Source: Thuidium tamariscinum (lineage: Eukaryota > Streptophyta > Bryopsida > Hypnales > Thuidiaceae). From it: a stretch of DNA of 64,000 nt. Made by a program: the position numbers and the translations under genes. Under the pieces are notes generated by a model. That model was not told the DNA's origin. It worked only from the letters and a program-made list of their open reading frames with translations, and did no database searches. The stretch spans positions 20,235,386 to 20,299,385 of the forward strand of contig OX344752.2 of NCBI GenBank assembly GCA_947034885.2, given 5' to 3'. This document shows positions 8,488 through 59,710 of this stretch, piece after piece. Position 1 is the first letter of the stretch. The number at the start of each line of letters is the position of its first letter.

Positions 8488-8517
8488 CCTTTTAAAGGAC
8501 CAAGTAGCATTTGGGGG

Positions 8518-9575: not shown

Positions 9576-10036
9576 CAATCATTGAGATTGACATTTTTCA
9601 ATTCTATAAATAAATTATTTACAGTTTAGTATTTTGAATCATTTTCAACTTATTTCTACTTATTGTCATTTTTCTATATGTAGTACAAATCCAAATTATT
9701 TGAATTTTTCAATCATGTAGCCAACTTGCCTTGAAGAATAAATCCAAAGAGTAACCACAAAATTGGACTTTCTTTCATACAAATGTGAACTTGTGAAGTA
9801 CAACCACGTGGGTTTTCTCAAGCCAAAAAAATGATTTTTGTCCATTCAAATGCTAATATTTTGCAATCTACATAGTAGAAAATTATTAAAAAAAACTTCT
9901 ACATCTTTTCAAACCAATGTGCTACAAATCATATAGTTGTATGTGTCAATTGTTTTATAAAATTTAAAACTTGTATTAGAAATGGGAATTTTGAAGTATT
10001 TTTGGTCTAATGTTTTAAAAACCATTTAGGGGTTAA

Positions 10037-10997
10037 AAGATTATAAATGACATATAGTTTCTACTTATCAAGGGTAGTTTGGGCAACTCAAAAAATTAAT
10101 TGTGTTAAGTGATATGACTAGAACTAGGGCTTTAAGATTTATACATATGTGTAAAGCTTTGAATCATTACATTTTGATTAATAAAATGAAAGTTAGGATG
10201 AGTTCTAGTGTGTGGGCAATTATGGAATATCTACTCTAGAATAAAATTTAAAATCCTTTATATAACTCAATTTTCAATATTTTTGAAAAAAATAGAATTA
10301 CAAGATGTAGAATGCCTACTATAATATAATGATGTTTGGGATTGGAATTTTAAAATTCCATAATCAAATTCTTAACAATTAAGTATTTAAAATTATATTC
10401 TATCTCTTTTTTTTTACTATTTTCTAAAGGCATGAATATTAATTAAAAAAAAAAGTTTTAATATGTAATTCCAATTTATTTTTTCAATATATTATGCAGA
10501 GACAAAAGTTGTGGGATCTAAAAAGTTTTGGATAAATTTTTTGAAAGATGAAACCTAACCTTTGGAAAGACTTGAAAATCAATTCTTTTTGAAATCCAAA
10601 AAATCATGACAATTTTATATTAGTTACAATTATTTTATTTTAAGATTTTAGAAGCATTGTATTCCACCAAGTTAACTAAAAGATTCCATGGTAAGAGTTG
10701 TTAATGCTCAAATATAGATGAGGATTTTAGCCTTGCTTTTAATATAAGTACTATGAAGTACTTTTGGATCTAAAAGCATTGAATTTTATTAAGGCTTAAC
10801 TGAACATGAACCAAATATAATGTGCAACTTGTTATTGATTTATAAAAATGAGTATTATTGATTTATTGAAATATCTTATTTAAATATCTATCAAAATTTG
10901 AAGAATATTTCAATTTTCCAATTGACATAAAAACATATGCCTTTTTTGACAAAAGGCATTTAGTAAACTTTAGTCCAATGAAATAGTAATCTCTTAG
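10037..10997. other. AT-rich intergenic DNA, nothing supported
   Basis: No open frame above about 60 codons with any recognisable feature, and no terminal repeats were recognised. Confidence 0.55.
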
Positions 10998-32200: not shown

Positions 32201-33231
32201 GCGCATGGTTCAGCTATTGTCTAACAACTCTTCTCAACAATGTAGTGTGACCTGATTTCACTTCTCCACGGTTCTGGGCCGATGGTTTCGACATCACATC
32301 ATCCGCAAGCCCCTTGAAATCTTCTTCACAACGCAACGCAGCCTTACAAAACGGTAGACATGCTCAAATTCGCCACAGGGGATCAGTGATACAAAGTTAT
32401 GGAATCACCTGGAGAAGGTAGTGCTAATCCTCCAAAATCGTGTCCAAGTAAGTGTTACTCTCTCCCTACCTTGACCGCGGACACTCCCCATATCGTTATC
32501 GAAGGCAAACGACAACCGTGATTTCAGTCCACCTGCTTGGACTCCAAATGTCTGTTAAGAGTCGGAGGTCGTTCAAGGGATAAATTCCCGATGGATGCCA
32601 TACCAAACGGCTGCAGTCACAGTGGCCCTCGTGAAGGTGATGCTGACTACAGTCGTCGCACCGTGGAGATCAGGGGTGGCCAAACTCACGAGCACCTGGG
32701 ACACAAATCCTTCGGTGCAAGAATGACATAGTGCGAACTCTGTTCGACCACCTTCTCGATTCTTCGAACCTCGATCTCCAGGGAAGATCGTCCTTAATGG
32801 TGAGAGTGACCCGCTGACGGTTAGCTAACTTGAGTTTGAAACTAGCGACACGGTGGCCAACACCGAAGGGCCCCCCTCTTAGATCTGGTTGCAGATGCCA
32901 GCCATCTCCGCTTCGTTTCCCCAGGAGTAACCTATCCGAATGAGCACTCACTCACGGCACTGAGCAATCCCTAGTCCAAGCAGGCAGAATGGGCACAGAT
33001 CCAATGAACAGAAACAAAGTCATGGAGAAAAAGAATATAAAAAGAAAAAGAAAAGGATCAATATCTTGAGATATCCTACAGGCGTTCAAGCCTCCAATGT
33101 CACTACGCTCTGGAAAAAATGGCTACATGCGGAACGTCCAGTCCAACTGCAATCCCCCGGAATGAACCCGGACGCCCTCAAAGAGCGCTGCGTTCTACAC
33201 CAAGAAACGACTGCAGCTGCAAGTCTTGCAG
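32201..33231 (-). other. GC-rich flank downstream of PIE1, probable 3' UTR
   Basis: Base composition rises from about 32.2 kb and is continuous with the PIE1 block, so this is probably the 3' untranslated part of the minus-strand transcript. A minus frame at 32951-32670 (93 codons) has no domain. A terminal exon reached from a donor-like CAG/GTTGGA just before the PIE1 stop cannot be excluded. Confidence 0.4.
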
Positions 33232-36200: not shown

Positions 36201-39200
36201 GATGATCAGTTTCCCACCCTTCTCCTTCCCGAGGCTCGCACCAACTCCTCCGTGACCACCAGAGCTCGCCTCCCCACCAGCCGACGATTTCGGGTCGCTG
36301 GAAATCCCGAAAATGGTCCTGAAAAGACTGGCCTCCAACGTCCTCGCCCTTCCTTTGCCCTGCAAACAACACGTCCCAACGAGTTCCGAACACATCAGAC
36401 GCGAACCAACACAGCGTCCGCAAAAGCACCCACACGTTCCACGGACATTACTAACGTCCTACACGTCCGCATTGGCAACTCCCCGCACTTCCCATCATCA
36501 GGCCCCGGAAGCGACGACGCTCGGTCTACTCCCAAACTCTCATCGTCCCAAACGGCACTACTTGCGCCGGGAAGGCCACGGAAGACACCAGCGGACCCTG
36601 TCGCGCTTACCAAGTGATCCTTCTTCAACTTCTTCGAATGCTTCTCCGCCGACAGCTCTTCCTCCAGTAACCTCGGGGCCTTTCGCTTTCTTTGAGAAGG
36701 GCTCCGATGCGGAAGGCCCATCAGCTCCGACTGCGCGTCCCGGTAAGAAGGGTCGCCGCCCCCGTCCAGCTGATAATCCTCTCCCACATTCTCCTCTTCC
36801 GTATCCGACATCAACGAACCTTCCGCCAAGGATTTGAACTTGGCCTTCTTCAACTTCTTCTTTCCTCTCGACTTCGGACCGAAGTTCTCCGCGCCTCTCA
36901 CCGTCGCGGCAGCTGCCGCTAAAGCCCTGGTCCACGCAAACCACAAACGGCATCGTCAAAAACTCGGCTTCACACACGACACACGGGCTGCTAAACCCAC
37001 CCCACGGAAAACGGAACGACCTACTGCCGCCACAACATCCCTCGTGACCGGGCTTGGACGAGGAGAACCAGCCACGACCAAGGGTCCAGAACCACCGTCT
37101 ACGACCTCCAGGATGCACCGGAACCAGAAATCCTGGAGGCGACACGCCAGCCAGCTTCCACGTCCGCCCAGGTTCGTGTCCCATCAGAAAATGGCAGCAT
37201 TTGCCCAAGAAGAGAGCGATCGAACACGGCACAAGTTCACGGAAGGAAGCCGACGGGACCCTCACCTGTCAGCGTCACGCATTTCGGCCTCCATGGCTTC
37301 CCACTCCAGCTGCTTCTGTTCCTGCTCAGTACAGAGTGCGTCAGAACCATCAACCCACATTCACTTTCAAAGCTCTCCAACGCCTCCAAAACAACACACA
37401 AACCCATCCGCCCCGCCGCCCAAACCGACCTGCGACATATCCATCGCCTGCCAGAACTATAAACAACCAAAGAACACCCTAAGCCGCAACGGAAACGCAG
37501 CTCGACCACGTCTGACCATACCACCCTTCCCATCCAAGCGTCCACCGTCGACCAGCACAATTCAAAAACAAAGGAAACCTCCAAAAACCAAACCCAAAAG
37601 ATCTCGAGAACGTCGGACGGACTCCGAAAGGGATGTGCCCACCTGCTGCTGAGCGAGAATGTCCACTTGCTGCCGATAAGCCTCGTCGGCGAATGCTGTG
37701 TCCCAAGCTGCAAGACATGCGCCACACTCGGTCATTTCATCCGCACCTACTGCTGCTCGACTCAAATACTGCCAACGACTGCCAGACCCACCATCATCGC
37801 ACCCTACCGTTTCCAGAGACGACCGACACAACTGACAGTGGCCCCACCAGGAACAGACCATCCGATGATAAACAGACCAGGGCCATGCGAACTGACCACG
37901 CACTACAAAATTCACAAGAAACCCGACGCTCTCAACGAACTCCTGCACCCTCAAACCACCCCTACTTCGCCCACTGGAGGCCACGTTCACTGACTCCGCA
38001 TCGACTGACCCACCCGATCCGGACAACACCCCACGCCCAGAGGAACTGGTCACCACGTACTCTCGTAAAACAAAGGCTCATTATCCTCGTCGATCTCGGC
38101 TTCCTGTTCCTCTTTCAGCTTCTCCAGCTGATCCAACTCCCACTCCTTCTCCTCGAATGCAACCTGCAATCCAAAAGAGCACGCACACCAATGTTTCAAA
38201 AAAACAGTGACAAACACAACGATCCTCCCCCTCCGGGATCCCGCCGTAAATGCCGTCACAGGCCCACTCCAGCTCAGTCCGACGCCGTCGGGATGAAAGC
38301 CCATACCCAAACGCCACACCCTCACCACAACCATCGCTCACAATCCGATATCGCTCCATAAGGCATCCCTCCACGTGCGATGGTGGAACGACAATATCGA
38401 TCCCAAGGATCATCGTAAAACAGTACTCCCACGATGCTTCAAATCAACTCGTCCCGTTCCAGCATTACATTCTAAACCACTCACACTCGACAAACACGCA
38501 ATCAACACCACACGTTCATTGAAGGACAGACCGAACAACAAACCCTCGTTGACGAAACGGGCACCGACCACCAGCAGACACATTCCTTGTCCACACCACG
38601 ACGCCAATGCACCCAGTGGAGTACCTGTGCGACGACGGCCAAGTTGTCCACTCGCGGATCCCACACTTCCAGAAACCGCATCGCATAACGCTCCACCGGA
38701 CGCAGCTGGTCTTCGAAGGACACGCTCCCACGTCCGGAGGCCGCGGCGGCGGCGGCCATCTGACGCACGTCCGCCAGCATGTCCATCTCTTCGTCGGCGT
38801 CCGTGGGAAGCAGGGAAGACTCACCGAACGGAAGGTCCTCCGTTCCCACCAACGCCACGCCATCCTCCGAGACCCTGTCCCCGGCGGCAGGACCACCCAC
38901 CAACGCCACGTCGCTCCCAGGTCTGCCGCTCCTCCCGTTCTCGTCCAGGTCGTCCGCGAGATCTTCGTCGTCCAAATTACCAGCGAACAACTCTTCCGTG
39001 AACTCTTGGTTTTCCGCCGCCTCCTCCTGCTCCACTCGTTTCATGGCCATGTAGTCCGCCTCGTCTTCCGCGTTCTTCAAGGCCGCTTCCACTTCGGCAC
39101 TCGACAGCTCCTTGGGTTCGAACGCCTTCGCGCTCGCTTCATCCGGACTTCCTGCGCCAGAAGAGGCCGATCGGCCCGCTCCGGAGATCTTGTCCGACGA

Positions 39201-42200
39201 TCCACCCACTTTCACCCCCTTCAGCCCGGAAAACAGCTCCATCGGGTCCAACTTCTTGAAAAAATCCGTGTTGTAACTCCCGCTCTGAATCACCAAATCG
39301 TCCAGGATCCGCTTCTGGTTCGCCTTCTTCAGAATGTTCTCCTCGATCGTGCTCTCGCTGATCAGGCGGTAGATGTGAACCTCGCGAGTCTGACCGATGC
39401 GATGGCAACGGTCCTGGGCTTGCAAGTCCATCGCCGGATTCCAATCGCTGTCGTAGAATATCACGGTGTCCGCGCCCACCAAATTGATGCCCACGCCGCC
39501 ACTACGCGTCGACAAAATGAACAGAAAGATCTTAGGATTCGTGTTGAAGCGCTGCATCAGAATCTGACGCTGCTCAGGCTTCGTCGAACCGTCCAGGCGC
39601 ATGTACGTGTACCCGTACAAGTTGATGAAAGACTCCAGCACGTCCAACATCTTCGTCATCTGAGTGAAAATCAACGCCCTGTGACCCTCCGATTTCAGGC
39701 GACGCAGAAGCAACGCCAGCTCCTGCAATTTCCCGCAGTCGAACTGAAGCAGGCGGCGGTCGGGGAAAAAAAGCTGCCGTCGCACCACCACGGGACGCAG
39801 AGGGACCAGCATCCGGCTCGCTTCCTGCAGCGCGTCCTCCGACACCGATCCACTCAGCACGGGCCCGCCGACGATCGCACGGCTGCACCAAGCCACCGGA
39901 ACGGGAGCCCGAGCCGCAGGAATCGCGAACATGAACGCCGTCACCAAATCCATCACGCGCTCGCAACGAGTCGTCGGAAGCTGCACCATTTCCGACAAGA
40001 TGCTCGAAAACTCCAAGTACTGACTCGGATGGCCTTCCACCCGGTGCACGTCGTACACGGGATGCAACACCCCCACCCTCCTCAAAATGTCGGAGCCATA
40101 CACCGGCTGCTGCCCGCAGCGCAGCTCGTTCACCGCCCACAGCGCCAGAACACGCTCCCTCCTCCGCCTCTCCCTCTCGTCCCGAAGGGCCCACTGAATC
40201 TCGTCGATCACGCTGCGGACCTCCCGGCTGGCCTTCTGCCGCGACTCCTGCGCCTTCCAACTGTCCTCGCCCGTACTCGCCAGCTCCACGATCAACGGAC
40301 CCGGAGTCTTGATCTTCGAGACCTCCTCCGCCTCCCACCTGCTCATCGCTCCGTCCAAACCACCGAACCGAAGGTTCAGCGCTTCCAGGCCCACAGCTCC
40401 CAACGGGCCCCTGCACAGGGCCGAGCACGCGGCCGAGCTCAGCTGGAGCTCGATGCCCGGCATGTCGAACGACGACACGATCGGACGGCCCTCGAACAAG
40501 TCCGGATGGTTGCACACTTTGCGCAGCTGCATCAGCACGTTGATCAGGCCCAGAAAATTGCCGCTCGAAAGAGTCGCCTGCGTGTCCGAGCTCGCCATGA
40601 AGTCCTCGTACAGGTTACGCTGACGCTTCGAAAGACGGCAACGGATCACGTGCTCGAATTTCCCGGGAAGCTGCTTCTCCACGTCCTTCTTCAAACGGCG
40701 CAGTAGAAACGGACGCAGCACGTTGTGCAAACGATCCACAAGCTCCTTGTTCACCTGAAACACACTCACGCAACAGTCAAACCTACCCGCTTCCACCAAC
40801 GACAGACGTACCACGCTACCTCCCGCCCCCTACGCACTCCACCTCCGGGACGCGCGACGGGTACACACAAAAGCTCAAAACGACACAGAAAGGCCGCGCC
40901 AGTACCTGGTCCGCGCCCTCCACCATCCCACTGATCGGGTTCGAGAACCAGTCGCGAAACTCCTGGTGCGACTGGAACACGTGAGGCATCAGGAAATGCA
41001 TCAGAGACCACAGCTCCATCAAATCGTTCTGCAGCGGAGTCCCCGTCAGAAGAATACGGCGCTTCGAATTGAAGTTCAGCAGAGTCTGCCATCTCTGAGA
41101 CTTCCAATTCTTGATCAGGTGCGCTTCGTCCAGGATCAAATACTTCCACTTCTTCCGCTTGAAGGCTTTCGCATCCTGGATCACCAAGCGGTACGTCGTG
41201 ATGCAAACGTGAAACGAGTTGCCGCGAGACCACCCCTGACGCTTCACTTTACGTTCCTTCGCGCTACCGAAGTACGTCAGGATCTTGAAGGCAGGGCACC
41301 ACTTCATGAACTCCGTCTCCCAGTTCAGCATCACGCTCGTGGGCACCACGATCAGATGCGGGCCCCAGATGCCCTTCTCGCAAGCCAGGTGAGCCAACAA
41401 GGCGATCGTCATGATCGTCTTACCCAGACCCATTTCGTCGGCCAGAATGCCGTTCAGACGCTTCTCGTACATCGTCACTAGCCAATCCAGACCGATGTGC
41501 TGGTACTCACGCAGCGAATGCTTCAACAGAAACGGAAGCTTGGTCTTCACCTTCGTCGTCGAGAACGTGTACCCAGTGGGTTGCGCCGATTGAGCAGCTG
41601 CGGCAAAATCCGCAAGACGGTCTTCGCTCTTCTTCTCCTCAACCAATGCAGCATTCGACGCCTCGACGCCACCCACGTCCTTCGCATCCGCACTCTGGAG
41701 GTCCAAGCCGGATCCCGCAACGGCCTCCAACGAACCTCCAGCGACCGCATTCTCAGACTCCAATGCCACACCTCCGTTGGCTACCACGCCGCCGACGTCC
41801 CCGTCGACAGCCACAGGGAGGGCAGCCGGGGAGACCTTGTCGCCGCGGGCTTCGCTCGCCTCCGCTTCTCCCGTCTTCGCAACGGCCCTCGCCTCAGAGT
41901 CCCCGCCGACCTCCCAAACTCGCATGCCTTCAGCGGACGACCTCATCAGGATACGATCGCCACGACGTCTGGCGGCCTCACTCACATTCGCCACAGCTGC
42001 CGCGGTCTCCGCATCCACCTGGTCCCACCCTCCCAGCAACAGGCCTGTGGATGATACCGAGTCCTTCGAACTCGCTGCTCCCGATAGCCCGTTCCTCCTC
42101 AAGAGAGGGGCCGAGGAATGCAACGCCCTTCCCTGGACGTCCATCTACCACATCCCACCACACCATGAAACCACGCAACATCAACAGACAGAACCAAACG

Positions 42201-45200
42201 CAGGCCCCACATTCACGTCAACGAGGACCCGCAACTACACAATTCGCCGCCCTGACTGCAACGGCAAACAACTCCCCACATCTCTCATCAACCCCCAACA
42301 CGCGACCCGGCTCCCTCGCACATAGCGACTCACTATCGTCCAGAGACCACACCTTCCCAGGCGCTCCCACGGCGTGGCTCGACAGCTTCGCCTCGACGAT
42401 CTCTTCCTTCACCTCGGCCGTGTCTATCGCTCCGCTCGACAACGCGACCCGGTGGTCCCGCCCACTCGTGCTCGGTTCCCCCATCCTCTCTCGCACGTCC
42501 GAAGAGTACCGCGCATCCTCATCCACGTCATCTTCGTCTTCGGCGCTACCACTCCCACTCGTGCCAGCTTCACTCGTACGATCTCGACGATCCTCCGAAA
42601 AATCGTCACTCTCTTCTCCGCCATCGCCCATACCCTGACTCAAAGCAAAACACGGCTTCAGCACCCACATGGAACCAACAACATCCGCAACGACCGCACT
42701 CTCCGACCGGGCGACCCCTTCATCCTCGCTAACCAAGGCCCACTCACCTCCCGCGTCACGCAAACCAAAATGCTACCCTACCACACGAAAATAAGAAACC
42801 CGAGGCACAAGCCCGACCCGGCAGCAGGGCAGCCTCCGGAACGACCTAACCGCACGCAGCACGAAGACTGGACCTCGCTCCCACAAGAGAGAACACTCCT
42901 TCCTACCACACCAAGAGCTCCAACCAATCCCCTACCCAAAGTGAGAAATGTGAATGCACCACAGCCAACGTTCAAGATCACTTACAGATCGGTACTGCGC
43001 CAATAGCTCTTCCAACGGCATCTCGCTCTCCAACTTCAGCGCATCGATCTACAACCACCACCACCACCACCAAACAAACAAACAAACATGGATCACGCGA
43101 CGCAACTCAGCGTAATCCGAATCGCAAACCAACTCAACAACCTCCTACGCCGTGCCTCAACCATCACCCAACTCCAGTCGGCACCACCCCTTGCATGCAT
43201 ATACATCACATCGCAACACCAGCGGAACCCCATTCCACATACACAAACAAAACTCGCACTGGGACACCAGCACAACCAACATCACTCACCTCGTTCGCGT
43301 CACCGTCTCCCTCTTCCTTCGCAAGTCGTTCCTCTTCTTCCAGCGTTCTCTCATCGTCAGCCTGACACAACGACGACAAACCGTCGGACATCAGTTTCGT
43401 CTTCACAAGCGTCGTCCCACAGCACTGCAAATACCCCTACTTAACGTGCCCGACCATCCGTGCAACACGCAACTCCAGCTCACGGACAAATGGGACTTCC
43501 ACGAAGCAAACAAACCAAGTAAGTGCACGCGGAAAGACTTAGACGCAGATTCGCCAAATAAACAAAAACATAGCGCGACGACATATCCCGCCATCGCACA
43601 CACTAATCACTCCGGGCAGTGCAAATAACCCAAGACTACGCACACATGTCTACGCATAAGGCAGTGCACAAGAGTTCTTCCCGATGCACACGTCCTGATT
43701 CACTCGGTAAAAAGAAAACGCCAGAAGCACACAGTACCTCGTCGCTCGCGTCGGCTAAAGCGCCGGGGACATAGTCCGTGTCATCCTGCAAAACACATGC
43801 CCCAACCCAATCAAACGACGTTCAAAGCCTTCCCAGGTGTCGCGCGTTCACTCAAACGCCCAACAAGAGACCTGATCGCCATCCAAAGACCTCCAAACCA
43901 CTCTTCTCGCTCTCACACACTCACCCAAAGATTCTCGTCGCCCCACGTACCAGGGCGACCAGATCCCTCATGGACCCATCCCTCAACCAATGGAATCTCG
44001 CAAATCACCTGTGTACTTCATCGTCACCACGCGGAAGGACATACCTGCAACTCAACGCCGCGCCCGTCCCAAGACTTGACATGGGTCCGTTCCTCCAGTT
44101 TCGCCTCCCTCCAAGACCGACCCACGCCTCCGAAATTCCGATGGCTCAACTCCACCACCAGCTTCGTCGACTCTACGCCAGCCTCGACCTCTCCACTACC
44201 ATGGGAACCCCGCCCAACTGCGACAGACACACCCACACCAGCAGCTTCTCCGACCTCACCTTCGTCCACCCGACTCACGGATGCCTCGGACCTCGACAAT
44301 GCACCTGCTGCCACGCCAACGCCCACTCCAGGCGTCCCTTCCTTCGCGCCCGCAATCGGACTCGAAAAACCCACATCCACCACATGTCCACCACGGTCGG
44401 GACCCAAACGCCCCTCCACGGAAACGGTCCCTCCGACCGCCCTGGCGTCGGGTAAGTCTGAGCCAGACCCTTCTGAGGTCGACGCTGGATGCTTCTTCGA
44501 CTCGTCGCTCACTGGGACGCCCGCAGGCACTCGACCACCCGCGCCCTCCGACGACTCCTCGTCACCAGCGCTACCCTCATCTCCGCCGACTTCTCCGCTC
44601 TCCTCCTCCGATGCCTCCTCCGATGCCTCGTCCTCACTCTCGCTGACGGAATCACCTGAGAAACCACGAGACACAATCCACTCGGACTCAGCGACTACCC
44701 GATTCCTCGCCTCCCACTCAGATCCCTAAATCCTCCCAAGAACCTCTCCCGCTCCACTCCACCCAAGCCACACATCAATCCCCCAAAATGCCTCCTAACT
44801 CACGTTATTGTACGACCTGGCAAACCGATACACAGGTCCGCGAAAGCGCTACAACAGGCCGGACCCTTCCCACGGCAGGCTTTCTGACAAAGTCGCACCC
44901 CAAGACAATCACCAAATACGAAGAACCCCTGCCCATCATATCCACAACCACACGTCCAAGAAGCTCAGCTTTCGACACCCCACGGAACTAGACAAAAAAA
45001 AGCCTCAAAAAAACACCAACCTCTCATCAGTTTGTACGCATTCAGAAGATCTTCCAGCGGAAGCTCACTCTCCCGCTGCAATGCACTAAGCTCCTCTTTC
45101 CTTTCATCTTCCGTGATCAACGCTTCGTCCGCTTCTAACGTGGCTTCGTCATCCTCCTGCGGATGCCAACGTTAGGGAGCGTCACAAGCACAGGGTCTAC

Positions 45201-48200
45201 CACAACATGGACAGCCCTCGATCCATCCATGATTCAAACGGAGTCACCGAAACACAAAGGCATCCCAACACCTAAATCACCCGTCTCAACACCAACCTCG
45301 ACCGCCTACTTGATCATTTCCTCCGCTACATAAAAAAAAAGACACAACAATTCGCATCGCTTACCAGCTCCTCTCCGTCCTCGACCATGAAATCCGCATC
45401 CGCGCCGCCCTCGATCTCCATCGCAACAGACCCGTCCAAATCGCCGCCGACGGCGACGGGCTCCGACGCAACTCCTCCATCAACAGGCAAGGCAGCCTTC
45501 GCGGGCACCGGGGGCAACAGGAAAACGCCTTCAGGTTCCTGCGCGCTAGCAGTGTCCCCAAGATTCTCGGCCAACATCGTCGAATACCTAAACAAAACAG
45601 TCCACCACCACCCCATCCCGCATCGGTCCCAACCCTCAGTTCTCAATCAAAACCAACACCAGCAGCAACGCGGACTGCAACCCGCCCTCTGAATGCCAAC
45701 GCAACACTGATGCCTCCACTGGCCCGACACGACCATTCAGCTACGAACTCACAACGGCTACGCCATCACAGCGGACTGATAAAACGAATCCCAATACCCG
45801 ACATCTTCACAAACCCCGTGATCAACAGGAACATACAACACATCACACGCGACGGAACCCAGCAGCCCTAAACCTCGTACCTCTCTGTCTGTCCCAGCAA
45901 AAAGTCCAGGTGCTTGTCCAGCGCCTTCTTCTTCCTCTCCTCCACCAGTAATTGCTGCTTATACGAAACCTGCCAAACAGAATAAACATCGACCATTGAG
46001 CACACACTGTCCCTCACTCACCCCTAGCAAAATTCCCCATCATCCCCACGATGGACAAGGCTCGACTGGGTGTCTCCGGAAACCGAGGAAAACGAACCCA
46101 CGGAATCGACCCCACGCAAGATGAAACTTGAAAGCCCAACACACGCGTCACCAAGTGCTCCGAACAAATGAGTTCCTATCACCACCCAAGACACGGACGA
46201 GAGTGACGTTACCAGCTTGTCCACTTTCAGCCAAAACTTCTTCACGTCTTTCGCGATGTTACTCGCCACTCGACGCATTCGCTGCTCCTCCTCCTGAGCA
46301 ACAACCACACACATTCCAAAGCGTTCATACCAACCACATGCTCCTCCACCATGACGGGGAAAAAAATCCGCACGCACGCGCAAACAATGCAAACAACCAT
46401 TACCAAGATCAAGCCGAAAAGAAGACCAACCCCACCTTCAATCGCCGGTTCTCCCGGGCCACCACGTCCAGCTTGCTTCGGTTCACACGCAAAGAGACCT
46501 TCTTCGCCTGACTCAACTTCCATTTCCGCTCCCTCTCGAAATCCTGAAATGGCACAACAACCACATCAAACTCCATCACTCGCGCACCTTGGGGGGTCCA
46601 AAGCAGATGTAAAAGCAGCATCTTGGACAACCTCAGACACGCAAGAGACACACACAAACGCCCCACGACGGCAGAATTACAATACAGGCCAAGGCGCTGC
46701 AACCTCGGATCCCAACGACCGACAAAAACCCTACAGCCGCAAACAAACCCGCGGAAACGGAACAAGCAAATCAAGACAAACGTTCGCCCACCTTGGCCAG
46801 CCAAGTCATCTCCTCGATCACGAAATCCCAGTGAGTCTTCGGTCGAACGGGCTCCTTGCTCTTCGGCAGACCCTTCTTGTCTTTATTCGCTTCCACGTAC
46901 TGCACAAACAACGGGTCAGACCTGACCCGACAACAACAACAATAACACGGAGGTACTTCACGTCCCTCACAGGCCTGCTGGCACTGCACCACCACGCCCA
47001 TTCCTAGCAACCCAAGGAGCTCCGGCCTCGTTTCCCACATAAACCTCACCGCTCACCACGAGGCGCTCCGACGAGAACCCAGGACCAAATGCGCAATCCT
47101 CCGATCCGCCATTTCGACAACGGCCGACAGAAACCGACCGATTCACAACACGCATCGGACCCAACGGAGGTCCTCCGTAACCACACCCCATGCCCACACA
47201 GGATGTCACGCACCCCGACGACCGTGCCAGACATGGGATGGGTCGTTCGGGAATGACGTACAAGTCCAGACGAAAACAAAACCCTACCATCCAAAAACCA
47301 GGTGGAGCACAAGCGCTTAAGACGGGATGAAGGGCTCGTGAAAAAAGAATCGCACCTCTTGCTTCAGAAGGATGTCGTCTGCCTCAGCAAGCACCGCGTC
47401 TTCGCGCTGCCGTCTCTGCAAGGCCAGGAGCCGACGACGAGACGCCAATGTACCCTGCAGGACAACGCCTTCCCTGTCTCCACCGGAATGACCTCCGTCC
47501 CTCCTCTCGCGATGGGGTTTGCCAGCCACGCTCTTCTCCGCAATGGATGGGCCCCCGTGCCTCCTGCCCGTCCCCCCGTCCCCTGCATCTCTTCTCTCGC
47601 GATGAGACTTTCCACCCACGCCCTCCTCCCTCTCTTCGACCGCCTGCCCCACTGCGTCGTCGCGCTCTCCCTGCGACCCTCCTCCACCCGCTCTGCTGTC
47701 CATGGCCGCTCGCCCGTCATCTCTCCTCTCCACGACCTGCTCTCCAGCAATTCTCCTCTCACGACGATGATGCTTCCCACCCGCTCTCTTCTCCGAAACG
47801 GGGGGTCCCTGCTCCGCCTCGCCCACGACCGGCTCTCCTGCATCGAGACTCTCACGATTCCCATTTCCGTCCAACCCCCTCTCCTCATTCGACTGCCACT
47901 CGCCGTTCCCTTCGCGGACCACCTCCACCTCTCCTGCTCTTCCCCGACCACCCTGGACTCCGTCGCCGCGAGTCTCCTCGTCCGCAGCTCGCCGGGCTTC
48001 CTGTCTCGCGATTTGGCCCCTCGTCTTCTGAGAACCAGGAGAAGCAGAACCCAGGCTCTTGCTCCGGCCATGGTGGTTGGAGCCCCCATTGCTGAACGGA
48101 CCCACGATCCTCACTCTCACCGGCACTCTCTCCTGGGGCTGGGGCTGGGGCTGGGGCGGACCCGGAGTCGTCTTCAAGGTGGAACCCTCCGAAACCGAAT

Positions 48201-48570
48201 CCTCTACGGGGGTCGAATCCCGGACGACCTCCCGGCCTTCAGGTGCCAACAGCCGGACAGCCGAGCTCCTCGTCGTCGGCACATTCTTGTTGGCCACATC
48301 GCCGGGCGATTTCGCCCCCGGCTTCGGACCACCCAAGACCTTTCTAGGTCTGCCCCTGCCTGCATGCCGCTTCTCTGGCTGAGCAGCCGCACCCTCCACC
48401 GACGGGACGCTCGCTGCGGCGGGCGCCTGAACCTCTTCCGACACCGACGGGGCTCCCCTCACATCCCGGACCGCAGGAAGACCGGACTCGAGGCTGGAGG
48501 TGGTGGTCTCGGGCTTTGCACGGTTTCGTCTCCCATAGCATTTCAGTTGCTTCGACGAAATCTGTTGCAT
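33232..48570 (-). CDS. PIE1: PIE1/SWR1 catalytic ATPase (Snf2 family, Swr1 subfamily), 21-exon gene
   Basis: Motor subunit of the SWR1 complex, which replaces H2A with H2A.Z in nucleosomes using ATP; nuclear. The model encodes 3,236 residues, against about 2,055 in Arabidopsis PIE1. In order: a low-complexity N-terminus (1-405) with an AT-hook-like GRGRPRK near residue 72; the HSA domain (about 417-504: RPKTHWDFVIEEMTWLAK, ERKWKLSQAKKV, DVKKFWLKVDKL); acidic segments with repeated ESELPLEDLL-type motifs; the ATPase core with Walker A DEMGLGKT (1248-1255), DEAH (1351-1354) and LLTGTPLQN; a long insertion between the lobes (about 1520-1770), which in this class binds RuvB-like proteins; the second lobe, ending in QAQDRCHRIGQ (1870-1880); and a SANT/Myb domain (about 2389-2455). 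The C-terminal ~750 residues are low-complexity, Ser/Gly/Ala-rich. An in-frame stop lies just before the chosen ATG. All catalytic motifs are intact, so the gene should be functional. The extra length lies in the N- and C-terminal disordered parts. Confidence 0.93.
33232..48570 (-). other. PIE1: Exon map of PIE1 (inferred from splice sites and homology)
   Basis: Coding exons, 5' to 3' on the minus strand: 48570-47356, 46899-46792, 46543-46436, 46293-46213, 45969-45881, 45587-45365, 45156-45021, 44655-44045, 43785-43738, 43361-43290, 43048-42986, 42634-42353, 42144-40906, 40754-38625, 38163-38061, 37707-37643, 37321-37266, 36926-36611, 36359-35850, 35731-35145, 34900-33232. Every proposed junction has GT and AG, the phases agree across every junction, and the total is 9,711 bases, divisible by three. 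Confidence is highest for the exons covering HSA, ATPase and SANT. It is lower for the acidic exons 43785-43738 and 43048-42986, which rest on short matches (DDTDYVPG, ESEMPLEELL), and for the start of exon 21 at 34900. Introns are short, mostly 80-460 bases. Confidence 0.8.
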
Positions 48571-49290
48571 TTCTTACCTGCTTTTAACATTCTCGCTTCA
48601 TGCACTCCCAAGGCACAATAAACTCCTCACTCCACCCCCGGCGCCAATCCTCGCAATCCCTCAGGGCCTCCGCATTCCCACGGACTCGGCGCCGTCCCCC
48701 TGGGCCCGGAACGCTGGCCTCGCGGCTCCCGCCCAACAATTCCCAAGCCCGATCGCTCCACGACCCCTGCGCAGACGAACTCTCGCCGCTCTCTCATGCA
48801 CACCCTAAATCGCAATCACCCCGCGCTCGACGCGGTACGCCTCCCACAACGGCGACGCAAACACTCCTCCGCGCACCAGCTCAGCAATCTGCATCGCCAA
48901 TCGCCACCGGGGTGCCGACGGACTGCATCGCCCGGGGGCGGGCGGGCGCTAGGGTTTCACCCGTTCTTGATCAAACGCGGACACAGAGCAACCGAAACCC
49001 TAACCACGCTGCACGCATCCAAGCGTCTGCACGATCAGGATGCCGTGGCGTCGCACACCAGCCAAAGCTATCCTAAGGAGCAGACAGACAGGGAGAAGGA
49101 GGCAAGAGCAGCGGCAAGAAACCCTAAGCTTACAAGAACCTGGAGAAAAGACGGCCTCGGGACCCGACGAGGCGGGATGCACGACGCAGTTGGTGGTTCT
49201 TGCGAGCGAGCCTTGGACAATCCGGACTGCTGCGCCTGGGGTGGACGATTCGCAGAAGCTCACCGACGAGCCTAATATAAAGGAGCCATC
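48571..49290 (-). promoter_or_regulatory. PIE1 5' leader / promoter region with telo-boxes
   Basis: GC-rich, without a convincing frame. Telo-boxes AAACCCTAA lie at 48995-49003 and 49119-49127 on the plus strand, and TAGGGTTT at 48950-48957 in the opposite orientation. A TATA-like TTTATATTA (minus strand, near 49270-49280) could place transcription start nearby, giving a leader of roughly 650 bases. A strong donor-like CAG/GTAAGA sits immediately before the start codon, which could hint at alternative leader splicing. Roles are inferred from motifs and position. Confidence 0.45.
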
Positions 49291-52726: not shown

Positions 52727-53268
52727 TAATCTTAGTCAAAAATTCTTTCATTTAATGTTCATGGTTTTATATAATAAATTGATAATTGATCAAAATTGAT
52801 TGGTAATGATTTTCATGGATTGAATTGTGCAAATATGTAGAAATTTTCTTTTTGCACATTTTCATTGAACAAGTAACTCCAAAAAAAGTTTCAAAAGCAA
52901 AGATGTATTGTAGTCAGAATTTTTTGATAAAAAATCTCTATTTTCATTCTTTGGAACATAAAAGGTAGATTATTCCTAAAAAATACAAATATAAATAAGA
53001 ATTTTTTTAAAAATAAATGCTTTAGTACTTAAAAAAAGGTTCAAAAAATTACAAAATGTTATTACAAAATGCAAAAGAGAAAAAAAAAGGGGGAAAAAAG
53101 AACAATCACCAAGACCTTTGGAAGGAATTGTGACTATTCTATAGGAGATTATAAATAGATAAATTTGAAGAAAAAAATTGGCATTTGGTGAATGCTCTTC
53201 TATATTTGTATTTTTATATTAATATTATTATCATTATTGCATTTTTTCTATGCTACATAATTCATTTG
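52727..53268. other. AT-rich intergenic DNA, nothing supported
   Basis: A-rich runs (for example near 53085) and no coding frame. Confidence 0.5.
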
Positions 53269-53270
53269 TA

Positions 53271-54639
53271 TAGTGGGGTACCAATCAAAATGTCATTTTC
53301 GAATTCGCAGTGAGAGAAATTTCAGTACTGCCAACTTTGAAAGCCTCCCGAGAGCTCAATAATTGGTATTTAACCACGAAATTTATACCACAGCATCATC
53401 TTTAAGTTAATTATATGTATGACAAATTTCAAGGCCAAAAGATTCACCAACAAAAAGTTATTCAAAATCTACCAACATGGGTAGTGGTGAGAAACATTTC
53501 ACTACTTTCAACTTTGACACCTTCCTAAGGATTGAGTTTTGCCATGAAATTTTTGTCATAAAACAATCTCTATGTTTTTAATATGTATAAAAGCTTCAAG
53601 GTAAAATGTTTTTTTTAAGAAAATATTTGAAATCTCCCAACAAGTGTAGTTTTTAGAAAATTTTCACAGTTGCCAACTTTGACACCCTTCCAAGGGTTGA
53701 AAATATGGTTTCTTACCATGAATTTTTTTGGTGAAGTCATCTCTATGTCAATAATATGTGCTCCAAATTCCAAATTCAAATGAATTATGATAAAAAAGAT
53801 ATACAAAATCTCCCAACATGTGTAGTTGTGAGGAGTTTTTGAGCCCTTAGTATAGTGTTATTTTGTGAAGCAAAGTTTGACACAAATGTAAAAACTCAAC
53901 CTCACAACTCCACATAATGAGAGATTTTGAATATCTTCTTTTGGGTAAGTGTTTTGAACTTGAAATTTGGAACATACATTATCAACATAAAGTTGATCTT
54001 ATTCAAAAAATTTCATGTCAAATAGACAAATTTTCAGCCCTTGGGAAGGTGTCAAAGTCGGCAGTAGTGAAAATTTTCTCACAACTACATATGTTGGGAG
54101 ATTTTGTATATCTTTTTTATCATAATTCATTTGAATTTGGAATTTGGAGCACATATTATTGACATAGAGATGACTTCACCAAAAAAATTCATGGTAAGAA
54201 ACCATATTTTCAACCCTTGGAAGGGTGTCAAAGTTGGCAACTGTGAAAATTTTCTAAAAACTACACTTGTTGGGAGATTTCAAATATTTTCTTAAAAAAA
54301 ACATTTTACCTTGAAGCTTTTATACATATTAAAAACATAGAGATTGTTTTATGACAAAAATTTCATGGCAAAACTCAATCCTTAGGAAGGTGTCAAAGTT
54401 GAAAGTAGTGAAATGTTTCTCACCACTACCCATGTTGGTAGATTTTGAATAACTTTTTGTTGGTGAATCTTTTGGCCTTGAAATTTGTCATACATATAAT
54501 TAACTTAAAGATGATGCTGTGGTATAAATTTCGTGGTTAAATACCAATTATTGAGCTCTCGAGAGGCTTTCAAAGTTGGCAGTACTGAAATTTTTCTCAC
54601 TGCGAATTCGAAAACGACATTTTGATTGGTACTCCACTG
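53271..54639. mobile_element. 1.37-kb palindromic foldback element built of ~170-bp subrepeats
   Basis: The left end TAGTGGGGTACCAATCAAAA and the right end, read on the minus strand, CAGTGGAGTACCAATCAAAA pair, and the pairing continues through most of both arms (about 53271-53840 and 54060-54639). Both arms encode the same 63-codon frame in opposite directions (53615-53806 minus, 54104-54295 plus), so the arms are almost identical. Each arm is itself a tandem array of diverged 166-178-bp units, marked by TTGGGAGATTTTG-like starts near 53916, 54094, 54268 and 54435. TA flanks both ends (53269-53270, 54640-54641), suggesting a TA target. No transposase is encoded. Confidence 0.85.
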
Positions 54640-54641
54640 TA

Positions 54642-55642
54642 CAAGTTGCTGGATTTGGATTGTAATTCTTTCCATTATGCATATGAACAAATTTATTGGT
54701 CAATTCTTATTGTTGATTGTAAGGGCCTACAATGAACGATTGTTGCAATTGTTTCAAGAGAACTTTTGGAATTGCTTTGCGAGTACAAGTTTGGAATTGT
54801 ATGTTGCAATGGAGATTGAGTGGCAATAGTAGAGATTGACAGTTAATCAAAAGAGTAGGAAATGGTGAGAGCAAGCAAATCAAGAATTCAAAACTAATAG
54901 GATTTGAGTGGCACATTGTAGGCCCTATAGCTTGGTCCATTACTATGGAGATTTTCATAAGGTCTTTTCCACTGCAGAGTTGACGAATTGCCACATCCGG
55001 AACAAAATCACGTCCAAAATTCGGACGTCCAGACCCATAGACGCAGTGGCAGGCGGATGGCCGATGCCGTCCAGTGGTCGCACGGACGGGTGGACGGGTG
55101 GGTAGGGGAAAGAACTAGAGAAGGCTACAAAAGGCCATTCTCCAACTCTCCACTGTCTCTAGTCTCCATCAGAGTTAGTCATTTCAAAGATGCAAGTAAA
55201 AATAGAAGTATCCTATTTTGTGTTCAAGAAACTAACCTAATGAATTCAAATTGGTTATTTTGAGTGCTTTGGTTGCAAAAATGAGTTTAAAATTTGCAAA
55301 TTGATTAATTTCTACAAGACAAAAGATTTCAACATTTTCTAAAGTGGTCAAGGAAAGAAGGGTGAGTGGTTGAGTGCACCTTGAATAGACAAAGTAGATA
55401 AAATGACAAATATTTCAAAGAATAAATAGATTATTTGATTGAGTTCTTAAAGAAGAACAATTGAATTTCTAGAAAGGATCATGTCAATTTGAAAATATAA
55501 ACTTGTATTATAATGAAAGGGTGCAACCATCAATTGCCATCACATAAACAATTCAGTACATGCCAAATTGTCAATATTCTATATGATTTGCACATCATGA
55601 GGTATGAACATCTAAACACCTAAGCTTACATCATTTTTGCTT
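54642..55642. other. Intergenic DNA between palindrome and hAT remnant
   Basis: No gene could be supported. The block 55000-55110 is unusually GC-rich and holds GGACGGGTGGACGGGTGGG. A similar GGTGGACGAGCGGACGGGTGG block lies at about 59980 beyond the other side of the hAT coding region, so both may be subterminal parts of the hAT element; no terminal repeat or 8-bp duplication was found to prove this. Confidence 0.45.
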
Positions 55643-58600
55643 CTAAGGATTGTAATCACTGTCTCCTTTCACCTCAGCCCCACTACTTTCACCCACTTTC
55701 TTCCATCCAGAATCTTCATCATCGGATGTGTCTTTCACACCATCTGATGAAGATTCTACAATTGTGTGTCCTTCTTTTGGTACTTGCTTACATGATCGCA
55801 TTGGTCCGTCCTTCTTTTCCTCTCTTCTTGCTCTTAATAGGACCTTCCCGATGCCTCCTTCAACGCAAGCAACCAGCTTTAATTTCTTTTTTGAAATATG
55901 TAGACTTGCATCAAGGGGAGTTCTACTTACAATATGTTTTTTGGATGGGGACATTGCAAAAAGCTCCATTACTCTTGTCCGATTGACTTTAATGGATTCT
56001 TTCACCACTGCTTGTCTTTCTTCTAGCTCCCTATTCAAAGTTATCTTCTTTGCATTTGAAGATTGCGGCATAGAATTCAACAATTTTCTAGTGTCACATC
56101 ACCGAGAAAGTAGTGAAGCCAATGTCTCATCATTATCATCATTGCTATGTTATGAAAGGGCTTTCTTTTTACTGATGTCAAACCACGTTTCTTTTGAACT
56201 GCTCAAATGTTGTTCTTCAAGACGCAAACTTCCTAAACCACCAACAGTTATACTTGTGGCCTTAAAAATTACATGTGGAGGAGTGCTACGTGGTGGTAGT
56301 AGGGGGTCTCGTATGAGCTCCTTCTTCCTTTTGCCATTGTACATTCTCCTCGACTTCATGTGGTTTAGGATTTGGAGTATTTGGTTCTCCATTTCCCTTG
56401 GTCACTAATATCCCTATTGAATCAACTTTTGTGTTGTCAATTTGTATTTGGACCTTCATTCTACATCTTCCGTTGTCATTGTGTTCAATATTCTCCCTCT
56501 CTTTTGGCATTGTTGTAGATGGAGATTCAGAAATCGGAATGACTTTATCTATTTGCAAGATCCCATCATTGGTAACCGTTGTCCTATTCTTCTCTCATAT
56601 TCGTATATGACTATCATCCTTGTTGGCTAAAAGGTTCTGGCTAATCATATATCCAATTCCATCTACATATTTGGCTATAGAAGGTATATCTTCATCATTT
56701 GCACAATTGTCATCATCCGAATGAAAGGCAAAGAGGTCTCCGGCCTCTCAATCATTGATTCTCAAATCTTCATCAATCCGGTTGGACATTGCAAACATTT
56801 TATTATCAAAATCATCAATGTCATTGTTCATAGGATCTTGATCATTAAAAAGAGAATTACCATCTTCACCATTATCATCTTCCAAAATCAGCCCCTCTGA
56901 ATCCTCTACTTCCTCCAAATCTACGTTGTCGTGGTACCACTTCTTTTCATCATTTTCCTTTGATGCAGCTAAAATTTTGGAATCGGTGTATACATACACC
57001 AAATCATTACCTCTTTTTGTCGTCAATTGATTTCGAGATTTGTTGTGAACAAAAGAATAGCTACTCCAATTACGTTCACATGAAGATGAGGAAACCGGTT
57101 GGGCCAATATCCTCTTTGCAATTGGTGCTATTAGCTTTCCGCATGCGCCTTCAAAATCTCACCAAGCGTGCAGCGATAACTTCTGTTCACTGGGCTCCAA
57201 CATCTCGTGGAGGGTGATTGCAAGAAACACTTGTCCTATTTTTTGTCCCCTTGACCTCCAACAGGTAGTTTTTTGCTCATAACTTTTGCATAGTTTGCCC
57301 TATCAACTTGAAATTTGGAATGAAGGTGCACAGAAAAGTTTTACATGTTGTGTAATTTTTTCAATTTTTTTAAAATTATTTTACTATTTTTAAACTGCCC
57401 CCGATTGGCTGTCTACTTTAGCCATTTTGGGGGTTTTTAGTCCTATTTTTGACTCAAAAATCCGAATTTGAAGCTACAAATTGGACAAGTTGGAGTTCTA
57501 CTAACATTTCAAAGATTGACGGTGAGTTTTTATAAAAATAATAAAGTATCTATTGTCCACATAGGGTCAAAGTGACCTTCCTTTGCACAAACTCTACGAA
57601 GAGGGAAAAACTTTTTTAGAAGAATTTTTTCTTGCAATGTGTGCACAATTTTGTTTAGAAAAATGGATTTTTTTAAAATAATTTTTTGATTTTTTTTTGA
57701 ATTATTAAAAATAAAAAGGTCCACAGACCCTTTTTCTGCTATTTTCTGCTCCCTGTGGCCTGTGAAGTACTTGTAGTGGTCCATAGTACTGCATAATACT
57801 GCATAGTACTACATTGACGGCCCAGATTTGAAATTGCCCGAAATCAACGGTTGAGATTTGCAGGTGCGCGTCAGACGCGCTGTACTGTCAGGATTGCGTA
57901 GTACTGCCAGTACTATGCCAAAAAACAGCATTTTGAGACAAAAACGTGAAGTGTTTCTTGCAATCACCCTGGAATGGAGGTTTTCTAAGTCGAAACACCA
58001 TAAATTCCTTCTCAACATCTGTATACTACTGTGGGTCACAAATTTGCATCAAGACATGCTTGCATACTTCAGTTGCATCTGGATTGTTGGCCAATTTTGT
58101 ATCATGAAGAAGGTAGGGGTTCAAAAGAACGCCTGCATAATGTAGATCTATGCAGCATTTCGTACCGGTCTTGAAAGGCCTTTTCCAATAGAAAGGTCAT
58201 ATGCGGAGCCAAATTAAAGGGTTCTTTCTGCAAAGAGAAGATATGCTTCTCAAATTTCCTCACAATATAATATATTTTGCATGCATAGTATCTTTGCATC
58301 CAAATCATGTAGCCCTGCATAAATGGAAGCCACCAAATCCTCAAAATTATTGTAGCGCCTCTAGAATGGTCCTCTAGTATTGTTTTCTTCACCTCTTAAG
58401 ACAATATGCAAACTTTTCTATTGTTCTTGTTCCCTAACTTCTTCACATATTCATTCCATTGTGGGTCTGTTACACTTTGTTGTAATGGACCCTTGACCTT
58501 CAACAACCACTCAATCATAATGAAGTTAGAGGCAAACTTTGTTTCCGCTGGATTCAATAAGCTGTACTTTGTCTCATATTTCCGAAATATTGCAAGTGGC

Positions 58601-59710
58601 ATTTGCCTCTTCTTGAAGAACCTCACTATCATTTGACTTTTGATCACTTGCTCCTTTATCCATTCTTCTTTCCTCCAATCTTTCAACAATAAGTTCACGA
58701 TGTGTACCACACAACCTTGTAGAAAGATGTGTGAATTTTTGGGAGCTATCAATTTCCAAGCTACTGGATTTGTAGCTGTATTATCTATACTTACTTGCAC
58801 CACATTGTTGGGACGTACTTTGTTAAGGAAGTCCTCCAATACAGACTCCACATATGGTGCATTTTTCTCCATTCCACTTGCATCTATTGATTTTATGAAT
58901 TGTTCACTTACACAAGACACAAGCATGCCATTTATCAATGGTCTCTTTTTAACCGAGCTCCATCCATCAATAGACAATGTTGCTCCAAATTTTCGAATGT
59001 TGTCATCAGTTTTCGATGTCTACCTTCGCTTGTTCAAGTAATTTATGGCGTAAATCGTGATATGATGGTGGCAAGTTCGGTTTCTTGAACTTAGCCGTTT
59101 TCTTCACCAATTCTTTAAATGCTGGATTTCGTGCTACAAAAAATGGTATGTTTACTACATAAAAGAAATTGGCTCACATTGCATTCAAGCTCTGTCTACT
59201 TGCTTCATCAAAGCCATCTACTAGCCTACTTTGTCTCTGAGGCTTACTACTTGATGCCCTCGGAGTTTCACGTTCATTGAACCTTTCAAAATTTCGATTT
59301 ACTTGGGAAGCTACAACTTCTTCTCCCTGCGGTGTATATGAACCCTCTTGTGCTGCAACGGTAGCACAAGGTGTATTTCTTCCATTTGAAAGATTGTTGT
59401 CAACTATAGGCGTGTCACTGCCATCCACATTGTCTAGGGCTGATCTTCGTGAGAAGAGTCCATTGCAATGGAGAAACAAAGCCCGAATTAACTCAGTTAA
59501 TCTTAAACAAAGGCTAACCCCTTTGTCACGACAATCTAATTTGCCTTCATATCTTAGGTGGCTCAATATACGATCGTGTCTCTTTGTAAACACCAAGTTG
59601 CAAGCCCTGCACCGCACTTTGTTGTCTTTCAGCCCAGAGATATACCAACCAGAGGAATCCTTACTCATCGTAATCCACTTGATTCGTTGATAATGGACAC
59701 CAAGTTGCAA
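55643..59710 (-). pseudogene. Decayed hAT transposase (BED zinc finger, DUF659, hAT dimerisation domain)
   Basis: Read on the minus strand: a BED-type zinc finger (Cys34, Cys37, His45, His51; CRACNLVFTKRHDRILSHL, about 59558-59611), then the ANFFYVVNIPFFVARNPAFK segment (near 59150), the DUF659 region (about 59040-58396; LSIDGWSSVKKRPLINGML), a conserved KKTILED stretch near 58385, and the C-terminal dimerisation motif ILAQPVSSSSCERNWSSY (near 57080). An acidic, low-complexity tail follows to 55643. The frame shifts at least three times and carries in-frame stops, for example TGG-TGA-GAT just before the dimerisation motif and TGAs in the tail. A 758-bp element sits inside it. It cannot make an active transposase. 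Element ends were not found. Confidence 0.87.
57212..57969. mobile_element. 758-bp inverted-repeat element nested in the hAT transposase
   Basis: Positions 57212-57232 and 57949-57969 are perfect 21-base inverted repeats beginning GGGTGATTGCAAGAAAC. TGGA occurs on both sides (57208-57211, 57970-57973), a probable 4-bp duplication. The insertion separates two parts of the hAT coding region. The right third holds repeated TAGTACTGCAT-like units (57776-57915) and the palindrome GCGCGTCAGACGCGC. There is no transposase frame. The superfamily is unclear: a GGG start would suit PIF/Harbinger, but a 4-bp duplication would not. Confidence 0.8.

What the first reader, a model, noticed from the sequence alone, without database searches (positions are those of the whole stretch)
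53271..54639. Large palindrome whose arms are tandem arrays of ~170-bp subrepeats
Seen: two arms of about 570 bp are near-identical inverted copies, including the same 63-codon frame in both directions, and each arm consists of diverged 166-178-bp units. The subunits within an arm differ far more than the two arms differ from each other, so the array is old but the palindrome is young or is homogenised between arms. Known: foldback elements such as Drosophila FB have inverted arms made of short tandem repeats; plants have few described examples of this size. Inference: a foldback-type transposon or an inverted duplication of a satellite fragment. Transcription across it would make a long double-stranded RNA.
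Basis: partly seen in the sequence, partly recalled or inferred. Interest (0 to 1): 0.72.

Follow-up and report, generated by a model that had tools for sequence, protein, structure and literature searches.

The report
Foldback transposon of a Tc1 lineage
This is one copy of a large family of hairpin-shaped, gene-less jumping DNA pieces that appear to have been moved by a Tc1-type transposase, an enzyme type best known from animals but here in a photosynthetic organism, and whose two mirror-image arms are kept alike by copying from one another.

Summary
Window 53271-54639 is a full-length copy of a dispersed foldback family (consensus 1394 bp from 40 copies). Ends are CAGTGGGGTACC...GGTACCCCACTG with a TA target duplication, supported by empty sites of other copies, one empty site lying in the window (9606-9751). 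Left arm: 50-bp head plus 3 units of about 170 bp; right arm: 4 units. A 24-base end motif occurs 2021 times in the genome, the reversed control 0 times.

The genome also carries 3.6-3.7-kb elements with matching ends and arms of 5 such units around a Tc1-type (DD34E) transposase; 6 of 7 less close relatives read have plain 31-37-bp ends. So this is a non-autonomous Tc1-lineage foldback, not a satellite fragment.

Arms of one copy are more alike (96.0%) than arms of different copies (90.8%); about half of an arm's private variants are in both arms, so arms are rewritten from each other.

No complete transposase frame was found in 8 of 8 armed loci read, so present activity is doubtful. The units do not repeat the terminal motif (tested, not significant); their function is inferred only. 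One end of a 21-kb inverted duplication, identical wherever read, lies in this copy's hairpin loop.

The parts
53269..53270 (.). TA target duplication, left
   Evidence: boundaries; 32 of 35 copies in which both ends were found have TA on both sides
53271..53319 (+). left terminal head, (C>T)AGTGGGGTACCAATCAAAATG..., not part of the units
53320..53489 (+). unit 1, left arm
   Evidence: unit profile
53497..53652 (+). unit 2, left arm
   Evidence: unit profile
53662..53830 (+). unit 3, left arm (innermost on this side)
   Evidence: unit profile
53831..53902 (.). hairpin loop between the innermost units; breakpoint of the 21-kb inverted duplication at 53835
53903..54072 (-). unit 4, right arm only
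   Evidence: unit profile
54080..54248 (-). unit 3, right arm
   Evidence: unit profile
54258..54413 (-). unit 2, right arm
   Evidence: unit profile
54421..54590 (-). unit 1, right arm
   Evidence: unit profile
54591..54639 (-). right terminal head, ends ...GGTACTCCACTG
54640..54641 (.). TA target duplication, right
9606..9751 (+). empty target site in a copy of another repeat; foldback copies L010, L018 and L022 sit at this position in other copies of that repeat (77-78% identical flanks)

Best explanation
A non-autonomous foldback DNA transposon of the Tc1 (DD34E) lineage. It has no gene. Shown: its ends and outer unit match those of a 3.7-kb element in the same genome that carries Tc1-type transposase pieces between arms of five of the same kind of unit; insertion is into TA, mostly within a TGTACA-like palindrome, and duplicates the TA. 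Inferred: the transposase made by such relatives binds the 50-bp heads, and perhaps also the repeated units, pairs the two ends, and cuts and pastes the foldback. Shown: the two arms of a copy share that copy's private variants. Inferred: arm-to-arm copying (hairpin template switching or repair at or before transposition) rewrites one arm from the other, after which an inserted copy's arms drift apart. Present-day activity is doubtful because no complete transposase frame was found.
For: Dispersed full-length copies; end motif 1034+987 sites against 0 for the reversed control; loop motif 861 and unit motif 4211 sites, controls 0. TA on both sides in 32 of 35 copies in which both ends were found; empty sites for L036 (in L055, 89% over 160 bp) and for L010, L018, L022 (window 9606-9751, 77-78%). 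A DDE_3 search led to L050, L056, L057 with matching ends and units; read in full they have 5+5 units and arms of about 947 bp, 98.4-99.8% alike. Spacing D-34-E, HTH_Tnp_Tc3_2 and DDE_3 domains, match to Sleeping Beauty transposase E 2.6e-26. The foldback consensus is 90-100% identical to element T3 over the first 200 bp in 40-base bins. Arms, 35 complete copies: within copy 96.0%, between copies 90.8%; 60 of 70 arms have their own partner as nearest; 602 variants in both arms, 749 in one; variants private to a copy: 88 in both arms, 180 in one.
Against: No complete transposase frame: in 8 of 8 arm-bearing loci read, the longest ATG frame with a catalytic-domain motif is 213 aa of about 335; other matches were not read. 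Beyond the outer 200 bp the foldback is 65-85% like T3 and 53-82% like T1, and its loop has no significant counterpart in them (best E 0.007), so it is not a simple internal deletion of a sampled full-size element. The terminal head has no significant match inside the arms (p 0.29, 0.24, 0.70), so units as binding sites lack sequence support.
Confidence: 0.92

Rival explanations
1. A fragment of a tandem satellite that was duplicated in inverted orientation at this place, with no transposition.
For: Arms are arrays of about 170-bp units, a common satellite length (the remark on length is recalled).
Against: Many dispersed copies with the same ends, TA duplication and empty sites, transposase-bearing relatives with the same kind of arms. 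Whether the unit also forms long arrays elsewhere was not tested.
Confidence: 0.02
2. A classical FB or Mutator-type foldback whose likeness to Tc1 is superficial.
For: Same shape as FB and Tm1 (PMC3169594, passages seen).
Against: TA duplication, not 9 bp; CAGT...ACTG ends; DD34E transposase inside relatives.
Confidence: 0.02
3. Arms are alike only because each copy is young, with no arm-to-arm rewriting.
For: Arms of a copy do differ (mean 4%), and 337 of 749 one-arm changes are C>T or G>A, as in decay after insertion.
Against: Copies differ by about 9% in the arms while own arms share many of the differences; 88 variants found in no other sampled copy are in both arms, where independent double hits would give about 0.1-1 (my estimate).
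Confidence: 0.05
4. The units are extra transposase-binding sites, as in Galileo or the IR/DR elements, and this is why the arms are kept.
For: Galileo's tandem arm repeats hold further binding sites (PMC3688188, abstract; PMC3573991, passages). Some 15-base stretches of the unit reach 1.6-1.7 bits a site against a mean of 1.4.
Against: Head motif not found in inner units; unit numbers differ between families (3/4, 4/4, 5/5).
Confidence: 0.4

Closest known systems
PpTc1 and PpTc2, Tc1-like elements of the moss Physcomitrella (PMC4054914; parts 1-2 of 5 of the text and find passages seen)
   Same: CAGT...ACTG ends, TA duplication, DD34E transposase (338 aa there, pieces of 125+210 aa in L062 here) in a photosynthetic eukaryote
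   Different: TIRs of 33 bp, 1,584 and 1,709 bp long, 85 and 22 copies; no unit arrays mentioned in the parts seen. Here arms of 570-950 bp of tandem units and a large gene-less foldback family. Not compared by sequence
Galileo, P superfamily, Drosophila (PMC3573991 passages; PMC3688188 abstract)
   Same: Transposase element with long arms that can contain tandem repeats (about 210 bp in subfamily F), repeat number differing between arms, linked to chromosomal inversions
   Different: P-type transposase with THAP domain; arm repeats shown to hold binding sites, here not shown
Tm1, Mutator/Foldback of root-knot nematodes (PMC3169594 passages)
   Same: Foldback arms of tandem units, with transposase-coding, MITE-like and hairpin versions in one family
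   Different: Units of 13-15 bp, 9-bp target duplication, Mutator-type grouping
Mcmar, a Tc1/mariner-like element of Meloidogyne chitwoodi (mentioned in a passage of PMC3169594; the original not read)
   Same: Tc1/mariner element with TIRs made of direct repeats and palindromes
   Different: 355-bp TIRs, animal host; no gene-less foldback family mentioned in the passage
IR/DR Tc1 elements such as Bari3 and Sleeping Beauty (PMC4120734 passages)
   Same: Tc1-lineage transposase, long ends with spaced direct repeats
   Different: Ends of about 250 bp with two or three binding repeats; here 3-5 whole-arm units that do not repeat the terminal motif
Tnr8 (rice) and FARE (Arabidopsis) foldbacks (only titles in a reference list seen; the rest recalled)
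   Same: Plant foldback elements
   Different: Recalled as not of the Tc1 lineage; not compared by sequence

Membership tests
Tc1-like (DD34E) lineage of Tc1/mariner | TA target duplication | tested here: met
   32 of 35 copies with both ends found have TA on both sides; empty sites with a single TA
Tc1-like (DD34E) lineage of Tc1/mariner | CAGT...ACTG termini | tested here: met
   Family consensus CAGTGGGG...CCCCACTG; the window copy has C>T at its left end
Tc1-like (DD34E) lineage of Tc1/mariner | DD34E transposase with HTH in same-ended full-size relatives | tested here: met
   34 residues between second D and E; Pfam DDE_3 and HTH_Tnp_Tc3_2
Tc1-like (DD34E) lineage of Tc1/mariner | The element itself encodes a transposase | tested here: not met
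   No conserved frame in the foldback copies: non-autonomous
Tc1-like (DD34E) lineage of Tc1/mariner | Mobilisation by that transposase | not testable with these tools
   No bench assay; no complete frame in 8 of 8 armed loci read
Foldback elements in the structural sense | Long inverted arms built of tandem subrepeats, in many dispersed copies | tested here: met
Drosophila FB / Mutator-type foldback | 9-bp target duplication (as given for Tm1; recalled for FB) | tested here: not met
   TA only
IR/DR group of Tc1 elements | Terminal binding motif repeated further inside each end | tested here: not met
   Local alignment of head against inner arm, 500 shuffles of the head, p 0.29/0.24/0.70
MITE | Gene-less, high copy, shared ends with a transposase-bearing relative | tested here: met
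MITE | Short, usually under about 800 bp (recalled) | tested here: not met
   consensus 1394 bp

The most novel reading that the evidence does not exclude
A Tc1 lineage in a photosynthetic eukaryote, probably a plant, independently evolved Galileo-like arms of nucleosome-sized units that serve as a multi-site transposase platform; the arms are rewritten from each other each time the element passes through a hairpin state, and such a hairpin seeded the 21-kb inverted duplication whose end lies in this copy's loop.
Probability: 0.25. Interest if true: 0.78.

Novelty: new variant of a known kind. Interest (0 to 1): 0.52.

Why it matters
Foldback arms made of tandem units are known from P-type and Mutator-type elements and, in a passing mention, from a nematode Tc1/mariner element. 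Here they appear in a DD34E Tc1 lineage of a photosynthetic eukaryote, next to relatives with plain 31-37-bp ends, so the gain of arms can be placed on a tree. The family has hundreds of copies with two comparable arms in each, which makes arm-to-arm gene conversion measurable copy by copy, and one copy marks the breakpoint of an inverted duplication that carries a SNF2-type gene.

Tried and rejected
Satellite or local inverted duplication: rejected by shared ends, empty sites and copy number. Coding arms: rejected. CACTA superfamily: rejected because the 5' end reads CAGTG and the transposase found is Tc1-type. Simple internal deletion of a sampled full-size element: rejected; likeness to T3 falls sharply after the first 200 bp and the loop has no significant counterpart. 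Units as copies of the terminal motif: tested, not significant. No Rfam match at gathering scores and no tRNA in the window. A 17.6-kb query did not return even its own place, so it was not used as evidence on the duplication; the place was read directly. The empty-site search for the window copy found none. Searches for a prior description; judging by titles and abstract starts, none of the papers listed describes a Tc1-type foldback family with unit arms in a plant; only open-licence papers are held. Searches looked for moss inverted duplications, gene conversion in Physcomitrella and the worm element Tc4; nothing from them is used.

Selection notes: the 40 aligned copies (the window's and 39 others) are the best-scoring of 1885 candidates for the window's own sequence, hence biased to window-like copies. 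Five incomplete ones (L033, L041-L044) were dropped before the arm counts. Spans: one search listed only its first 100 zero-mismatch places; the 92 on contig C1 were used and give 22 pairs, 17 of 1374-1406 bp, the others 1576, 1674, 1773, 2003 and 3368.

Full report
What was checked. The window holds two arms, 53266-53840 and 54070-54644, 575 nt and 98% complementary, 229 nt apart. A profile of the repeat unit (170 positions), built iteratively from one unit of a relative, finds three units in the left arm and four in the right. The arrangement is unequal: the fourth right unit has no left partner and the real loop is about 60-75 bp. Outside the units each end has a head of about 50 bp.

It is a transposon family. 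A search of the same genome (363 Mb, 19 contigs) with the element scored 40 of 1885 candidates; besides the window's own place it listed 39 other long matches, covering at least 1221 of 1379 bases. Aligned, the 40 give a consensus of 1394 bp that begins CAGTGGGGTACC and ends GGTACCCCACTG. The outer 24 bases occur at 1034+987 sites with up to 3 mismatches, control 0; a 27-base loop motif at 428+433, control 0; a 27-base unit motif at 2137+2074, control 0. Copy number is thus several hundred, perhaps near a thousand counting sibling forms (inference). On contig C1, 17 of 22 zero-mismatch end pairs span 1374-1406 bp, the window's size class; the other five span 1576-3368 bp (from the listing). 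L059, of the 1576 class, has four units on each side, so the window's 3+4 form may come from a 4+4 form by loss of one unit (inference).

Insertion sites. Of 35 copies in which both ends were found, 32 have TA on both sides. The bases before the left TA are mostly TG (T 29/35, G 32/35) and those after the right TA mostly CA (C 32/35, A 33/35). Related empty sites settle that the duplication is TA and that TGTACA belongs mostly to the target: L036 against L055 (89% over 160 bp), and L010, L018 and L022 against the window's own bases 9606-9751 (77-78%) and against L017. Other alignments are weaker (about 69-78%, most without a clean single TA) and are not relied on. L010, L018 and L022 sit at one position of the same host repeat. 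L018 looks like a separate insertion (96.4% like L032, 92.8% like L022); L010 is as close to L022 as to any copy (93.4%), so for that pair one insertion copied with its host is not excluded. L047 is at the same place with a damaged end. No empty site was found for the window copy itself. Two copies on contig C1 stand side by side sharing one TA (52029586-52029587).

The transposase-bearing relatives. A search for the DDE_3 domain gave 48 matches. Of the ten loci fetched with it, L050, L056 and L057 had matching ends and units. Read in full, these are T3 (C9), T1 (C1) and T2 (C6): 3.6-3.7 kb, five units on each side, arms of about 947 bp that are 99.8, 99.1 and 98.4% alike. T3 has the foldback's CAGTGGGGTACC end; T1 and T2 have CAGTAGGGTCCC. 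The coding pieces contain DDE_3 and HTH_Tnp_Tc3_2, align to the Sleeping Beauty transposase (E 2.6e-26), and have 34 residues between the second D and the E. Of 143 protein matches in the genome, 15 loci were put in one tree: the 8 with unit arms lie on one side of a split with support 1.000 and the 7 without on the other; those 7 are 50-56% identical to T2 over the aligned part. Short inverted ends of 31-37 bp were found in 6 of the 7, not in L054. L048 also has one unit near the edge of its stretch, outside its own short ends. In none of the 8 armed loci was a complete frame found; the longest ATG frame with a catalytic motif has 213 aa (L067). Weaker or partial matches were not read.

How the foldback relates to them. 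Over the first 200 bp the foldback consensus is 90-100% identical to T3 and then drops at once to 65-85%; unit 1 is 94% identical, units 2-4 at most 81% to any unit of T1 or T3. Its loop has no significant counterpart in T1-T3 (best E 0.007). The simplest reading is a mosaic: an end recognised by a T3-like transposase joined to inner units of another branch (inference). Same-position units of T1 and T3 are 79-85% alike, but only positions 1, 2 and 5 pair up in the unit tree, and units 3 and 4 of T1 are as close to a neighbouring unit of T3; so at least part of the array is older than the split of T1 and T3.

The arms are rewritten from each other. In 35 complete copies, own arms are 96.0% alike (85.8-99.8), arms of different copies 90.8%; 60 of 70 arms have their own partner as the nearest arm, 10 do not; 602 departures from consensus are in both arms, 749 in one. 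Among variants seen in no other sampled copy, 88 are in both arms and 180 in one arm; private changes in the unpaired block run at 1.14% per base, one-arm changes at 0.48% per base and arm, both-arm changes at 0.47% per site (the arm figures are the stricter, being held against 68 other arms instead of 34 other copies). Independent double changes would give about 0.1 to 1 (my estimate). 'Private' means private among 35 sampled of hundreds. One-arm changes are rich in C>T and G>A (337 of 749), both-arm changes less so (190 of 602), as expected if the first are decay after insertion (inference). The correlation of arm divergence with private change in the unpaired block is weak (rho 0.27, p 0.12), so the test of 'reset at each transposition' is open. 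Arms differ more between copies (9.2%) than the unpaired block does (6.0%); I have no explanation.

Do the units bind transposase? In Galileo further binding sites lie in the arm repeats (PMC3688188, abstract; PMC3573991, passages). Here the head has no significant match in the inner arm, so the IR/DR description is not met. The unit has more conserved stretches, compatible with binding but not evidence of it. As RNA the element would fold into a near-perfect hairpin of -1014 kcal/mol; whether it is transcribed is unknown.

A breakpoint in the loop. One search found the window copy's left flank, 170 bp at 100%, inverted, 47 kb away. Reading that place showed that window 53835 down to 32560 is repeated in inverted order at C4:20334982-20356257; about 8.7 kb of the 21.3 kb was read (4219 bp in one run, eight probes of 401 bp, 1358 bp at the far end) with no difference. 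Beyond 32560 the likeness continues at 90% with 40 gap columns to about 31855, which argues against a plain assembly copy. The near end lies 5 bp inside the left arm's inner end; the other place has only the left half of the foldback, joined to a copy of the host repeat that elsewhere carries foldbacks. A hairpin-seeded duplication and a long conversion tract are both possible. One case cannot show cause.

Host. Light-harvesting genes show a photosynthetic eukaryote. The nearest published Tc1-type elements seen are from a moss (PMC4054914), but the species was not identified, and 'plant' is an inference.

Verdict. A real, well-preserved foldback element of a Tc1-type lineage with unit arms: a new variant of a known kind, with two points beyond routine: the arms' concerted evolution is measurable, and the loop marks a duplication end.

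Noticed in passing
window 32560-53835 and C4:20334982-20356257 (L071, L072-L079, L090): 21.3-kb inverted duplication, identical in the 8.7 kb read, ending in the foldback loop at 53835; beyond 32560 it continues at about 90% to 31855. Probes at 38, 40 and 42 kb show that it includes the SNF2-type gene.
   Followed up: partly
G000, light-harvesting gene matches: Several light-harvesting genes occur as nearby pairs in opposite orientation with equal scores (C6:563839/633145, C1:112866/136018, C9:17062358/17064868), which hints at more homogenised inverted duplications in this genome.
   Followed up: no
window 33000-49000: A 16-kb block of 53-64% G+C in surroundings of mostly 25-40%, with a SNF2/helicase gene on the minus strand (38502-42144; Pfam SNF2-rel_dom and Helicase_C).
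   Followed up: no
window 8500-10423: Copy of a dispersed repeat that in other loci carries foldback insertions at one fixed position, empty here at about 9685.
   Followed up: partly
window 58396-59019: DUF659 domain on the minus strand, perhaps part of an hAT-type transposon (the hAT link is recalled).
   Followed up: no
L048, L049, L051, L052, L053, L055: Tc1-type transposase loci with 31-37-bp inverted ends beside the armed lineage in the same genome.
   Followed up: partly
L058 (C1:6943700-6947360): A 3.4-kb end-to-end stretch with 18 units in changing orientation, apparently a foldback nested in or recombined with another.
   Followed up: no
arms against unpaired block in 35 copies: Arms differ between copies by 9.2%, the unpaired block by only 6.0%; unexplained.
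   Followed up: no
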